A stretch of 64,000 bases of DNA, taken from positions 1 through 64,000 of IMG/VR virus record IMGVR_UViG_3300044838_000031. One strand, 5' to 3'. Positions within the stretch are counted from its first letter, which is position 1. Every line of letters starts with the position of its first letter. The notes beneath the pieces were generated by a model. The model was not told the DNA's origin, did not search any database, and worked only from the letters and a program-made list of their open reading frames with translations. This DNA is from a virus. The position numbers were made by a program, and so were the translations under genes. Shown here piece after piece: positions 5,799 to 58,568 of the stretch.

Positions 5799-5992
5799 CA
5801 GTATTCCTCCAGGTTGTCGAGTCCGTGGGATTCGAAGTACAACTTTTCGTACTTGTCGATAAGCCCCCGTAAGTAGCGGATGTCGGCGGCGTAGCACTGT
5901 TGAGCGAGCGAGCCGGGCTCTTCTGCTGCGTAAAGCGTTTGCATTTTGGCCAGTAGGTCTCGATCTGCGAGAATTCCGCGCTCTGGGTTCAC
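5798..5992 (-). CDS. Small helical protein
   Basis: 64 aa from GTG at 5992 (GTGA overlap with the preceding stop). Two predicted helices (DRDLLAKMQTLYAAEE, DIRYLRGLIDKYEKLYFES). Function is unknown. Confidence 0.55.
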   Translation of the reverse strand: MNPERGILADRDLLAKMQTLYAAEEPGSLAQQCYAADIRYLRGLIDKYEKLYFESHGLDNLEEY

Positions 5993-6069
5993 GACTCCTC
6001 GATTCTGTCGAGCATGGCGTCAATCCACGCGATAGCGGCATCCCAGTCGAATTCGACATCGTCGGTCAT
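5989..6069 (-). CDS. 26-aa acidic peptide
   Basis: ATG at 6069 overlaps the upstream TGA and the stop overlaps the next GTG. An acidic amphipathic helix (DWDAAIAWIDAMLDRIEE) fills the frame. It is retained because of coupling on both sides. Confidence 0.45.
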   Translation of the reverse strand: MTDDVEFDWDAAIAWIDAMLDRIEES

Positions 6070-6227
6070 GTGACGGTCCTCGCGAAGTGAACTAGGCGTC
6101 CTTTGAGGAGGGGCACACCGTAGATGTCGGTGCAGTCCTGGTTGGGTGTGGCGTGGCAGACGATGCAGCGCCGTGTGAGGGCGTCGTGGACGGGTGGGCT
6201 GTCACGGTCGGTGAACGGGGTTGTCAT
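6066..6227 (-). CDS. Small zinc-finger-like protein
   Basis: 53 aa with RRCIVCHATPNQDC and a downstream histidine (LVHFAR). It resembles the 52-aa zinc protein at 5640-5798 in design: CxxC, a third cysteine about 7 residues later, then His. Coupled by ATGA to the resolvase-like gene upstream. Confidence 0.5.
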   Translation of the reverse strand: MTTPFTDRDSPPVHDALTRRCIVCHATPNQDCTDIYGVPLLKGRLVHFARTVT

Positions 6228-6610
6228 GCGACCACATCCATCCGGTGGCCGTGGCGCTGGCCGGTGATCAGGGCTAGCAAATCGTCGACGGTGCAGTGGA
6301 CCCAGAATTTGCCGGGGTTGGTGGTGCCGCGGCGCTTGGCGATCACTATTCCGGTGAGTGCGTCGTCGTTTCCGGCTTCGGTGTGGGCTTCGCCTGTCCA
6401 GCCGGGTAGGTCGAGGCGGGCGCAGTCTTTGACTTCGATGACGATGCGTTGGCCGTGTGCGCGGAGGCCGCTGATGTCGCCGCGGTCTTTTGCGCCGCGT
6501 TTGACTCTGCGGTCGATGCGGTCGTCGTCGAGGGTGGTGGCGATGTAGTCGGCGACGGCGCGTTCGGTGTGTCCGCCGGCGTTACGGGCTGAGGTTCTGG
6601 ATCTGGTCAT
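6224..6610 (-). CDS. Holliday-junction-resolvase-like PD-(D/E)XK nuclease
   Basis: 128 aa. The core reads RGAKDRGDISGL (acidic residue of the first motif), then IVIEVKDCARLDLPGW (ExK motif), then EAGNDDALTGIVIAKRRG and a final strand (FWVHCTVDDL). This is the layout of the archaeal/phage Holliday-junction resolvase and nuclease group, in which E-V-K and an upstream Asp bind the catalytic metal. It probably resolves recombination or replication intermediates. It lies directly beside the putative origin and the primase-helicase gene. Confidence 0.75.
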   Translation of the reverse strand: MTRSRTSARNAGGHTERAVADYIATTLDDDRIDRRVKRGAKDRGDISGLRAHGQRIVIEVKDCARLDLPGWTGEAHTEAGNDDALTGIVIAKRRGTTNPGKFWVHCTVDDLLALITGQRHGHRMDVVA

Positions 6611-6639
6611 GGGTGGTGTTTCCTTTGTTAGCCGTAACT

Positions 6640-6848
6640 GGCAGATAGGTTGGACAGGTTGGACATGTTGGACGCCCCCCCGCGGGTTTGGTGCCTCGTC
6701 ATGAAATAGGATTTATATAGGTTATCTATATTAGCTAGTAGAGTACTATTTAGAGTTTTCTTAGTAAGGTAACCCTTATCAGAATTTTTGGGGGAGGGGT
6801 TGGACATGTCCAACCTTTGTCCAACCTTTCTTATATTTGCTGGACAGG
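6640..6848. other. Candidate replication origin: iterons around an AT-rich island
   Basis: The 9-mer GGTTGGACA occurs at 6648-6656 and 6657-6665 in tandem, with a variant TGTTGGACG at 6666-6674. After an AT-rich stretch (about 6700-6785) it recurs at 6798-6806, inverted at 6807-6815 (together the perfect palindrome GGTTGGACATGTCCAACC), inverted again at 6818-6826, and as a variant GCTGGACA at 6839-6846. Iterons flanking an easily melted region next to a primase-helicase gene are the classic layout of a phage origin. An operator array is the alternative. Confidence 0.6.
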
Positions 6849-9077
6849 TCATAACTTCACCCACCTGACACCGTCCGCGCTGCGTTTGATCAGCCCGTCA
6901 TCGACAGCGACAACAAGTACCGATTGCAGAATTGAGCGGTCCCGGCTGGACATTGCCCGCGTGATTTCCTGCCGGGACATGCCGTCGTCGCAGGCTTTGT
7001 CGAGCTTGTCCAGCAGCCAGCGCAGCACCCGCTGACCGCGCTCGCTGCGGCGGTGATCCCGCTCGGCATCCGATGTTTCGATCTCGATTCCGCGGACCAC
7101 ACCGCGGGCTTCGGCTTCGCGGGCGGAGGCGTCTTTGATGGCGTCGAGGACTAGTTCGCGGGTGTAGGTGGAAATGTCGGAGGCGATGCCTGAGAGTTCC
7201 CAGTCTTCGGATGTCATGTCGGTGCGGCCGTCGAGCACGGTGAGGGCGTAGGCTATTTTTTCCCGCACGAACAGTGCGTGGCCGTCGAGGGCGTCGGATT
7301 GTCCGCGCATCGCTTTGACCCGTTCGGTGAGGATCAGTTCGCGCGCCTCGTCGGGGATGGTCAGTTCGATGGGGTAGAGCCACGCAGAGGGGGGTGGGAG
7401 GGTGAGTGCGCCGGATTCCCAGGGTGGTGATGCGGTGATGCGTGGGTCGGTTCCGGGGAACCACATGAAGCGTTGCGGGGTTCCACCCCCGGTGTCATTG
7501 AGCAACGCGGTGGCTCGTTCTGGTTGGACGCTGACTACCAGTGTGAGCCGGTAGGTGTGTGCGTCGATGTTGCGGCGTTTGTCTTTGTCGGCGTAGGAGA
7601 ATCCGAGTTGTTCGGCGGAGAAGGCGCTGCGCATGATGGACATCAGGGTGGCGCCGGTGCGGCTGCCGAGAGCGGTGAGTGTGTCGATTTCGTCGGCGCT
7701 GAACAGGATGGCTTCGCGGCGCGAATCGGGGTCTTTCATATCGCCGGCGAACGCCGCAACGAGACCTTCTCCGGAGCCGAGGTTGTGCTGCTGAACGTGT
7801 CCTGGGACCAGTAGTCGGGCGGCCGCGGCGGCGGATCCTTTTCCGCCTCCGGAGACGGCGGTGATGGCGGCGAACCAGTTGAGGCTGCCGGGGCCGCCGA
7901 TGAGTGGCGGGAGTGTGATGCAGGGCCGTACCTGTGTGAGTGCGCGGGCGGCGCAGTGCGCCAGGACTGCCCACGGGCTGCACATGCGTGCCATGGCGGT
8001 GGTGTACACCATTTGTAGGGATTCTCGGGCGTCCCAGAATCCGCGCTCAATGTCAACGATGTGGTTGTGCGGCTCATGTTCTGGATCTTGAGGTGGTTCT
8101 GTTTTGGCTGCGGTGGTGTCGATGGTGATGTTGCGCATCCAGTCGGTCAGCGATGGCTGGGCGAGTTCGCGGGCGGCGCCGTCGCCGGTGACCATCGCCC
8201 GGAATTCGTGGATGGCTTCGTCTTTGCCACCGGCCCGGTCGGGTGCTACGAGGGCGATGAACATTTCTCCGAGCGCCAATAGGGCGCTGTTGACGCCGGA
8301 TTCGCCGCTTGTTCCCAGCCGTAGCAGGGCTAATACGTGTCCGCGGGTGGTGTCGTGGCGGGAATGCCCGGGCAGGTTGAGTTCTTTGATTGCTTGCCGA
8401 AGTCTGTCGACGACGGGTGTGGAGGGTTCGCCTTCGGTGAGTGCGTCTTTGATGCGGTAGGTGTGCCCGTGGAGTGTTGCCACCGATTTTTGGGCGCCCA
8501 GGCTGGTGATCCAGGTGTCGGGTAGTGGCGGTAGGTTGTCGGATTCGGGGATGCCGACGAGCTGGTCGGTGTCGTTAAGCCATTGGTATCCGCGGCCTTC
8601 GGGGTGAATGGATGGCCATGCGAGGACGTAGCGGTGGTGATGTTGAACGATTTCGATGTCACCGATTCCGAGTTCGGCGAATTCAATGCCTTCGGCGAGC
8701 TGTGTGCCTGGGGGGATGCGGTAGAGCCGGATGCCGGATACGCCGTCGCGGCGGCTGGTGGATCGGCTGGCCGGGGGGAGTTCACCCCAGCGGTGTTCGG
8801 CTTCTTTGAGGGTGCGGGCACCGGTTTTGGCGCCGTAGGCGTCGACGTCGATACCGATGATGCCGTCCGGTAGGCGTAGGCACAGGTTCCCGTCAGGATA
8901 GAGTTCTGCCCAGGACATGACGTCGGGGTAGGACGGATCGTTGCCGGCGCGGCCTGTGAAGCCTGTGGGTGGCGATTTTTTGTGTCCGCGCCGGATGGGT
9001 AGGATTCCGCGCCAGCCGTTGCGCCAGTAGGTGTCTGCGGCGGCGCCGTAGCCGAGGGTTTGTTGCTGTTCGGGCAT
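6849..9077 (-). CDS. Bifunctional primase-polymerase with helicase domain
   Basis: 742 aa from ATG at 9077 (a GTG 3 nt upstream is possible). The N-terminal ~200 residues look like an archaeo-eukaryotic Prim-Pol domain: the metal-binding D77-V-D79 (GIIGIDVDAYG), SGIRLYR at 114-120, histidines at 146-148 and PSIHPEGRGY at 155-164. The C-terminal part (from about 340) carries a P-loop, VSGGGKGSA near 408-416, and a Walker B, ILFSADEID near 457-465, like DUF3987-type phage helicases. The end has a possible winged helix (MSRQEITRAM). It should prime and unwind DNA at replication forks; the iteron island begins just after its stop. Confidence 0.85.
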   Translation of the reverse strand: MPEQQQTLGYGAAADTYWRNGWRGILPIRRGHKKSPPTGFTGRAGNDPSYPDVMSWAELYPDGNLCLRLPDGIIGIDVDAYGAKTGARTLKEAEHRWGELPPASRSTSRRDGVSGIRLYRIPPGTQLAEGIEFAELGIGDIEIVQHHHRYVLAWPSIHPEGRGYQWLNDTDQLVGIPESDNLPPLPDTWITSLGAQKSVATLHGHTYRIKDALTEGEPSTPVVDRLRQAIKELNLPGHSRHDTTRGHVLALLRLGTSGESGVNSALLALGEMFIALVAPDRAGGKDEAIHEFRAMVTGDGAARELAQPSLTDWMRNITIDTTAAKTEPPQDPEHEPHNHIVDIERGFWDARESLQMVYTTAMARMCSPWAVLAHCAARALTQVRPCITLPPLIGGPGSLNWFAAITAVSGGGKGSAAAAARLLVPGHVQQHNLGSGEGLVAAFAGDMKDPDSRREAILFSADEIDTLTALGSRTGATLMSIMRSAFSAEQLGFSYADKDKRRNIDAHTYRLTLVVSVQPERATALLNDTGGGTPQRFMWFPGTDPRITASPPWESGALTLPPPSAWLYPIELTIPDEARELILTERVKAMRGQSDALDGHALFVREKIAYALTVLDGRTDMTSEDWELSGIASDISTYTRELVLDAIKDASAREAEARGVVRGIEIETSDAERDHRRSERGQRVLRWLLDKLDKACDDGMSRQEITRAMSSRDRSILQSVLVVAVDDGLIKRSADGVRWVKL

Positions 9078-9385
9078 CACGCTGTCACCGCTTTACCCTT
9101 GTCGGCGATGACTTCGCGTCGCATTGTGTCGGCGCTGGCGATAGCTTTCAGGAGCATCGCCACCCGGTCAGCGTCGTCAGGTTTGGCTGATAGCCAGTGG
9201 ATCATCTGGTCTTGTATGTGCGCCAGGTTCCCGATGAGCCTGTCGATCAGTGCCTTGATCGCTTTTTGCTTAGGTGCCGGGTAGGCGATCCACAGTTCAC
9301 CGTTGTGGGTGAAGCGGGCGCTATGGCCGAGGGGCAGCCCAACCGAAAACGTAACCTGCACACGCTTCGTTACGTCCTCGGTCAT
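9077..9385 (-). CDS. Hypothetical protein, replication cluster
   Basis: 102 aa from ATG 9385. It begins with two strands (QVTFSVGLPLG, RFTHNGELWIAY) and continues as a long helix (KAIKALIDRLIGNLAHIQDQ). Overlap with the primase-helicase start is by TGATG or GTGA, so the two are translated together. The role is unknown. Confidence 0.6.
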   Translation of the reverse strand: MTEDVTKRVQVTFSVGLPLGHSARFTHNGELWIAYPAPKQKAIKALIDRLIGNLAHIQDQMIHWLSAKPDDADRVAMLLKAIASADTMRREVIADKGKAVTA

Positions 9386-57567: not shown

Positions 57568-58506
57568 TCACCTTTCTTTCTGGGACTGCAGATATCGAAC
57601 CAACCCCAGCGCCCGTTCCTGCGAATCCAACAGCAAACCAAGAGCCCTATTGCAATTCCCGCACAGCAGCCCACGCACCGCGCCAGTCGCATGGTCGTGG
57701 TCGACATGTGGAACCTTGTCACCGAACTCGTCGCCGCAGCCAGCACACCTACCGCCTTGCGCTTCAAACAGCCGGTCGTAGTCCTCCGGGGTAAACCCGT
57801 TGTAGAGACGTCTCCTCTGACGATTCCGCGCCAGAACCTTGACCTTCTCCGAATTGTTTGCAGCCCATATCTTTGTCTTCTCGATCACGATCTCGCGGTT
57901 CCGCACGTAGTAATCCCGATGACTATCTTTTTGACACGATTTGCAACGAGACTGAAAACCGCTCTTGTTCGCTCGGTGGTGACTGAACTGCCCGATGGGC
58001 TTGATAACTTCACAGACAGTGCAGCGCTTCTCACGAATGGTCGGATCGGGATCATAGCTAAGAGCACGTCCATGTTCGCGATGGCATGACTTGCACCACG
58101 CCGCAAGACCACTCTTATCCAGCCTATTTGGACTGAACTGATCGGCAGTCTTAACGAGTTTGCATCTGGTGCAACACTTCTCGGAAACCGACACATCGTA
58201 GCTCAACCCAGATCGATACTCGCTGACGCAGGCTTTACACTGACCCGATAACCCGTCAGTAGCTAGTCTGTTTCGCTTAAACTGATCAGCGGGCTTAGTC
58301 AACTTACATGCGCTGCAACGCTTTTCGTCAGGAACATCGATAACGCTGCGCTGCCGGTTTCGTTCGCAGCGAGCGCGCTGCGCGGCCCTGTCGCACTCTC
58401 GACATATGCGCGCCAAGCCGTCTTCCCTGGACCGGCACCAGTTGAACTGGTCCACAGACTTCGTCTGCTTACATTTACCGCAACGCTTCAGCGTAGTATC
58501 AGTCAC
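57568..58506 (-). CDS. Endonuclease VII-like nuclease with four zinc repeats
   Basis: 312 aa from GTG 58506, fixed by AGGAGG 6 nt upstream. Four ~45-residue repeats (CGKCKQTKSVDQF, CSACKLTKPADQF, CTRCKLVKTADQF, CTVCEVIKPIGQF), each with a CxxCK..K..DQF and a GL..CK.C half. The C-terminal ~90 residues match recombination endonuclease VII: CAGCGDEFG, VDHDHATGAVRGLLCGNCN. Inserted between the capsid and the 57287 gene, it is probably mobile. Confidence 0.8.
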   Translation of the reverse strand: MTDTTLKRCGKCKQTKSVDQFNWCRSREDGLARICRECDRAAQRARCERNRQRSVIDVPDEKRCSACKLTKPADQFKRNRLATDGLSGQCKACVSEYRSGLSYDVSVSEKCCTRCKLVKTADQFSPNRLDKSGLAAWCKSCHREHGRALSYDPDPTIREKRCTVCEVIKPIGQFSHHRANKSGFQSRCKSCQKDSHRDYYVRNREIVIEKTKIWAANNSEKVKVLARNRQRRRLYNGFTPEDYDRLFEAQGGRCAGCGDEFGDKVPHVDHDHATGAVRGLLCGNCNRALGLLLDSQERALGLVRYLQSQKER

Positions 58507-58535
58507 GTCGAACCTCCTACATAGGTTTGGCCACA

Positions 58536-58568
58536 CCCGGGCCTGCTTGCGGCAGGCGCCGGGCTTTT
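58536..58568 (+). terminator. GC-rich hairpin with TTTT on the plus strand
   Basis: CCCGGGCCTGC (58536-58546) pairs with GCAGGC-GCCGGG (58552-58563, one bulge), followed by CTTTT. As at 673, 1837 and 12752, the T-run is on the strand opposite to the genes. On the minus strand it lies upstream of the endonuclease start. Confidence 0.5.

What the first reader, a model, noticed from the sequence alone, without database searches (positions are those of the whole stretch)
6640..6848. Iteron-flanked AT-rich island, candidate replication origin
Five exact and two variant copies of GGTTGGACA bracket about 100 bp of AT-rich sequence; three are tandem direct repeats and two form the 18-bp palindrome GGTTGGACATGTCCAACC. 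The island lies directly between the primase-polymerase/helicase gene and a Holliday-junction-resolvase-like gene. The sequence shows this directly; origin function is inferred from the general layout of iteron origins.
Basis: partly seen in the sequence, partly recalled or inferred. Interest (0 to 1): 0.75.

Follow-up and report, generated by a model that had tools for sequence, protein, structure and literature searches.

The report
Phage replication origin with swappable key
The repeats flanking an AT-rich patch are very probably the place where this actinobacterial phage starts copying its DNA; relatives keep the layout but each uses its own repeat word, which changes together with the DNA-reading tip of the neighbouring replication enzyme.

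Summary
Confirmed and extended. The 9-mer GGTTGGACA occurs five times in the 64,196-bp virus record, all within 179 bp, around the most AT-rich 100 bp of the window (31% GC). The island directly follows the stop codon of a Prim-Pol/DUF3987 helicase gene and precedes a RusA-like gene. Among 137 non-redundant relatives of that helicase, 77 have at least 4 copies of some 8-mer in the same 450 nt; only 47 of 2,237 control windows do. 71 of the 77 have copies on both sides of an AT minimum, most often as →→← [AT] →←←. The repeat word differs between phages and follows the helicase's last ~75 residues, predicted to fold as a winged helix. In two M. abscessus prophages the DNA is 96–100% identical except for those codons plus the island. 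This is the PICI/SaPI origin plan, which one paper says no other known replicon shares, here in autonomous tailed phages. Origin activity and binding were not tested; GC skew gives no support.

The parts
6849..9080 (-). Prim-Pol / MCM-like (DUF3987) helicase gene, 743 aa; proposed self-loading replication initiator
   Evidence: Pfam PF09250 E 4e-19, DUF3987 E 2e-5 (score below cut-off); phrog_11515 E 9e-228; helicase model pLDDT 94.5, best solved folds MCM, Z about 15
6852..7091 (-). C-terminal 80 codons (aa 664-743): winged helix, proposed iteron-reading domain; modelled recognition helix aa 712-727 begins SRDR (about 6900-6947)
   Evidence: AlphaFold2 pLDDT 87.5; winged-helix matches; iteron covariation peaks here
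6836..6843 (-). CCAGCAAA element just after the helicase stop codon; function unknown
   Evidence: [CT]AGCAAA within -10..+30 of the stop in 16 of 77 origin loci, 0 in two control offsets
6818..6826 (-). iteron GGTTGGACA
6807..6815 (-). iteron GGTTGGACA (palindrome half)
6798..6806 (+). iteron GGTTGGACA (palindrome half)
6687..6790 (.). AT-rich core, 31% GC; proposed melting region
6666..6674 (+). variant iteron TGTTGGACG
6657..6665 (+). iteron GGTTGGACA
6648..6656 (+). iteron GGTTGGACA
6224..6610 (-). RusA-like Holliday-junction resolvase gene, first gene after the island; next to the origin, not shown to be part of it
   Evidence: phrog_244 E 4e-28

Best explanation
The island is the phage's replication origin. 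The protein encoded immediately before it (- strand order) carries an N-terminal AEP-type Prim-Pol, an MCM-like AAA+ ring helicase and a C-terminal winged helix. The winged helix binds the 9-bp iterons in two inverted blocks on either side of the AT core, which would seat two oppositely facing helicase rings. The AT core melts, the rings load onto single strands, and the fused Prim-Pol primes. Shown here: the repeats, core, position, recurrence in relatives, winged-helix and MCM-like predicted folds, and covariation of the iteron word with the C-terminal domain. Inferred: binding, melting, ring loading, bidirectional start and origin activity itself.
For: Recurrence: 77 of 137 non-redundant homologous loci have at least 4 copies of an 8-mer in the 450 nt around the helicase stop (101 of 165 before de-duplication) against 47 of 2,237 control windows. 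71 of 77 have copies on both sides of an AT minimum, and in 48 of these 71 the majority orientation of the two blocks is opposite. The arrangement ++-[AT]+-- recurs in dozens of loci. Blind scan: of 24 viral contigs holding the palindrome GGTGGACATGTCCACC, 11 carry the helicase, with a palindrome 21-235 bp past its stop; most of the others hold the palindrome alone. Covariation: partial Mantel r 0.32, p 0.002, given the helicase core; 30-residue windows peak in the last 60 residues (0.34-0.36) against at most 0.18 elsewhere. RDR at the recognition helix goes with GGACA in the iteron: 21/28 vs 5/49, and in phylogenetically independent pairs about 5.9 vs 0.3 (median p 0.03, range 0.008-0.38). 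Natural swaps: GD17-1 vs GD05-1 are 96-100% identical apart from about -200..+250 around the helicase stop (56-76%), with downstream gene and core elements kept; GD12-2 vs GD17-1 lose all DNA similarity from -227 to about +650. Folds.
Against: No binding, melting or replication data. About 44% of non-redundant homologous loci show no iteron cluster at this spot; many are distant or fragmentary, and cluster O phages have theirs about 5.5-5.8 kb before the helicase stop. GC skew has no extremum here. P4 shows that such a 3' iteron region can be a helper element (crr) with the start elsewhere. The Mantel correlation is moderate, and the iteron consensus calls are automatic.
Confidence: 0.87

Rival explanations
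1. The island is a P4 crr-like helper or incompatibility site for the initiator, and the replication start lies at another locus.
For: In phage P4 the iteron-bearing crr lies directly 3' of the alpha gene while ori is about 4.5 kb away. One relative (L085/L197) has a second iteron cluster 3.2 kb before the helicase stop.
Against: The 9-mer has no other cluster in this record, and P4's own ori shares the iterons. The commonest relatives carry a single site with an AT core between the two blocks.
Confidence: 0.08
2. The repeats are operators of a transcription regulator controlling the RusA-side genes, and the AT core is a promoter.
For: The island lies upstream of the RusA-like gene on the same strand. 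One weak promoter-like match was found (9 of 12; 1 found, 0.4 expected).
Against: The word changes with the helicase C-terminus, and in the GD17-1/GD05-1 pair the downstream gene stays 92-100% identical while both the word and the C-terminus change. Cluster O phages keep the layout in a different gene context.
Confidence: 0.04
3. The iterons are host DnaA boxes, so the origin is fired by DnaA.
For: From memory, actinobacterial DnaA boxes read like TTGTCCACA. Relative L006 contains that string, and the window word TTGTCCAAC differs at two positions.
Against: Sister phages use unrelated words such as CCAGCAAACC, CCCTCGGAACC and GGCGCCTCCACC with the same architecture; DnaA-box-like strings are essentially absent from the cores.
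Confidence: 0.02

Closest known systems
SaPI / PICI rep-ori
   Same: Initiator helicase, sometimes fused to a primase, with the origin immediately 3' of its gene and two iteron sets flanking an AT-rich region (PMC6092414); the SaPI Rep C-terminal domain recognises the iterons (PMC7581432).
   Different: Here in complete temperate tailed phages of actinobacteria. No sequence relative at E<=1 in the solved-structure set other than P-loop and winged-helix matches. The Prim-Pol is fused to a DUF3987/MCM-like helicase.
SCCmec Cch2 helicase and its putative origin
   Same: MCM-like helicase whose isolated C-terminal domain binds direct repeats downstream of its gene (PMC7581432).
   Different: Only three 5-nt iterons are reported there, and the primase is a separate protein (CCPol-MP).
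Phage P4 alpha / crr / ori
   Same: Primase-helicase initiator with iterons directly 3' of its gene (crr); repeat TGTTCACC against TGTCCACC common in this family.
   Different: P4 also needs a remote ori. Alpha shows no homology beyond the P-loop in a single-sequence comparison (hhalign probability 5.6%).
Cluster O mycobacteriophage AT-rich element (Corndog group)
   Same: Prim-pol 47% identical; ATGTTGTACA iterons flank an AT-rich core. The 2015 authors suggested that one of two AT-rich elements may be the origin (PMC4351075).
   Different: The element lies about 5.5-5.8 kb before the prim-pol stop instead of directly after it.

Membership tests
PICI/SaPI-type origin | Origin region immediately 3' of the initiator helicase gene | tested here: met
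   Island starts at the stop codon; recurs in 77 of 137 relatives
[quoted passage not shown]
   71 of 77 relatives
PICI/SaPI-type origin | Initiator C-terminal domain recognises the iterons | tested here: inconclusive
   Winged-helix prediction and covariation agree; binding itself cannot be tested here
PICI/SaPI-type origin | Autonomous replication of a rep-ori plasmid | not testable with these tools
   needs an experiment
PICI/SaPI-type origin | Carried by a phage satellite lacking its own full virion gene set | tested here: not met
   The record encodes terminase, portal, major head protein, tape measure, tail proteins and integrase: an autonomous temperate phage. It works like a PICI origin but is not a PICI
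MCM-like helicases of mobile elements | MCM-like AAA+ fold | tested here: met
   PDB matches dominated by MCM, Z about 15, 248 residues aligned at 4.3 A; a predicted fold only
P4 alpha-type replicon | Iterons at both a remote ori and a crr site | tested here: not met
   Only one iteron cluster in the record; the record may be incomplete at its ends
P4 alpha-type replicon | Initiator homologous to P4 alpha | tested here: inconclusive
   hhalign finds only the P-loop, against a single alpha sequence
DnaA-box origin | Clustered DnaA boxes in the origin | tested here: not met
   No exact DnaA-box-like string in the island; 1 of 73 cores of the family

The most novel reading that the evidence does not exclude
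The initiator's C-terminal winged helix and its iterons form a rapidly diversifying, jointly exchanged specificity cassette, comparable to plasmid incompatibility types. It would let co-resident or superinfecting phages keep replicons apart or escape hijacking, and would yield a readable protein-to-DNA recognition code.
Probability: 0.4. Interest if true: 0.78.

Novelty: new variant of a known kind. Interest (0 to 1): 0.62.

Why it matters
[quoted passage not shown] the data here place the same plan across actinobacterial phages and related elements. It predicts replication origins for many sequenced actinophages for which I found no described origin in the papers searched. It also supplies natural experiments (near-identical helicases with different winged helices and different iterons) from which a winged-helix recognition code could be worked out and origin plasmids built for Gordonia and mycobacteria.

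Tried and rejected
GC skew: no extremum at the island. Exact window palindrome GGTTGGACATGTCCAACC in all viral contigs: no hit, so this exact word is private to this phage in that collection. Near DNA relatives of window 1-25000 in phage records: none. phmmer of the initiator against PDB sequences: none; a profile found only P-loop and winged-helix matches. Conserved motifs inside the AT core: ACCTGC, TATATATA and AGGGYNNCC-type strings are enriched in cores I had looked at, but only TATATATA and, weakly, ACCTGC carried over to held-out cores, so no universal core motif is claimed. Downstream nuclease as the iteron reader: rejected, because GD17-1 and GD05-1 keep the downstream DNA at 92-100% while the iterons change. 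Non-helicase hits of the blind palindrome scan: most hold the palindrome alone and look like chance; L193 and L201 do not.

Full report
Observation. GGTTGGACA occurs five times in the whole 64,196-bp virus record, all at 6648-6826; shuffles of the window never reach five. No other 250-nt window of the 64 kb has as many copies of one 8- or 9-mer. The core at 6687-6790 is 31% GC in a 60.6% GC sequence and contains its most AT-rich 100 bp. On the - strand, in the direction of the genes, the order is: stop of the 743-aa primase-helicase gene (6849), CCAGCAAA, three iterons, AT core, three iterons (one a variant), start of the RusA-like gene (6610).

Setting. The gene encodes a Prim-Pol domain (PF09250) and a DUF3987 region (below Pfam's cut-off), and matches phage primase/polymerase families. 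The record also carries terminase, portal, major head protein, tape measure, tail genes and an integrase, so this is an autonomous temperate tailed phage and not a satellite. The initiator's closest named relatives infect Mycobacterium and Gordonia, at 45-47% identity over nearly the whole length.

Comparison. I fetched regions around homologous helicases from named phages, viral contigs and bacterial genomes. In the 450 nt around the helicase stop, 101 of 165 loci carry at least four copies of an 8-mer, against 47 of 2,237 control windows of the same loci and about two copies in shuffles. After removing near-duplicates the figure is 77 of 137. Copies lie on both sides of an AT minimum in 71 of the 77, and in 48 of these 71 the majority orientation of the two blocks is opposite. 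The commonest arrangement is two iterons, one reversed, AT core, then the mirror image. The word differs widely: ATGTGGACA, AGGTGGCCA, CCAGCAAACC, CCCTCGGAACC, GGCGCCTCCACC, GTGTCGGCCA and others. A blind scan of viral contigs for GGTGGACATGTCCACC, ignoring genes, returned 24 contigs; 11 hold the helicase, with a palindrome 21-235 bp past its stop codon. Most of the other contigs hold the palindrome alone.

What reads the iterons. The last 80 residues are predicted as a winged helix (pLDDT 87.5) at the end of a long helix leaving an MCM-like helicase (pLDDT 94.5; MCM matches at Z about 15; winged-helix matches). Across 70 loci, similarity of the iteron word follows similarity of this domain after allowing for the helicase core (partial Mantel r 0.32, p 0.002). 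A scan of 30-residue windows peaks in the last 60 residues at 0.34-0.36, against at most 0.18 elsewhere. Proteins with RDR at the start of the recognition helix have GGACA in their iterons in 21 of 28 cases, against 5 of 49 for the rest; pairs independent on the helicase tree agree in about 5.9 cases and disagree in 0.3, with a median p of 0.03 that varies with the pairing.

Natural swaps. Prophages GD12-2 and GD17-1 are 96.7% identical up to 227 bp before the helicase stop, then unalignable until about 650 bp after it; the block covers the winged helix, the island and the next gene. GD17-1 and GD05-1 are sharper: 96-100% identical upstream, 92-100% from +250 to about +650, and 56-76% only between -200 and +250. 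Inside that stretch the palindromic word changes from GTGTCAGCGCTGACA to GTGGAGGCGCCTCCA while core strings such as CCCTAATAAACGTCTCTA are kept. The next gene is therefore not the partner. L008/L009 and L054/L081 show similar local dips.

Mechanism. Shown: sequence anatomy, recurrence, predicted folds and covariation. Inferred from SaPI Rep and Cch2 (PMC7581432): the winged helix docks the ring helicase on the iterons, the opposed blocks seat two rings, the AT core opens, and the fused Prim-Pol primes.

Known context. [quoted passage not shown] Phage P4 has its crr iterons directly 3' of alpha, with a separate ori. In cluster O mycobacteriophages the element sits about 5.5-5.8 kb before the prim-pol stop, where an origin had been suggested in 2015 among two candidate AT-rich elements (PMC4351075). 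In the open-access papers searched I found no description of this family of actinophage origins; subscription papers were not searchable.

Limits. Nothing here measures replication or binding. About 44% of homologous loci lack a detectable cluster at this spot, GC skew is silent, and P4 warns that a 3' iteron region can be a helper site. Confidence that the island is the origin used by this initiator: 0.87.

Noticed in passing
L011 (Mycobacterium phage Catdawg) about 550-760; same in Ryadel L010: ATGTTGTACA iterons in a ++ [AT-rich] +-- layout about 5.5-5.8 kb before the prim-pol stop: a displaced origin of the same type, supporting one of the two sites proposed in the 2015 cluster O paper.
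   Followed up: partly
L197 / L085, -3322 to -3170 relative to the helicase stop: A second cluster of GGGGTGGACA iterons 3.2 kb before the helicase stop, in addition to the 3' one, reminiscent of P4's ori plus crr.
   Followed up: partly
L193, 5640-6000 (- strand gene 5802-8147): GGTGGACA palindromes and repeats in and directly after a different initiator (PriCT_2 plus AAA_25): the same word on an unrelated helicase chassis.
   Followed up: partly
window 6836-6843 (-) and the helicase stop of 15 further relatives: Conserved (C/T)AGCAAA just after the helicase stop codon; function unknown. In Pimento the iteron itself reads CCAGCAAACC.
   Followed up: partly
L201, 9014-9280: Twelve GTCCACC/GGTGGAC copies in a stretch without any Pfam match.
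   Followed up: no
window 57568-58536 (-): Protein matching endonuclease VII families several times over, encoded between the glycosyltransferase and major head protein genes.
   Followed up: no
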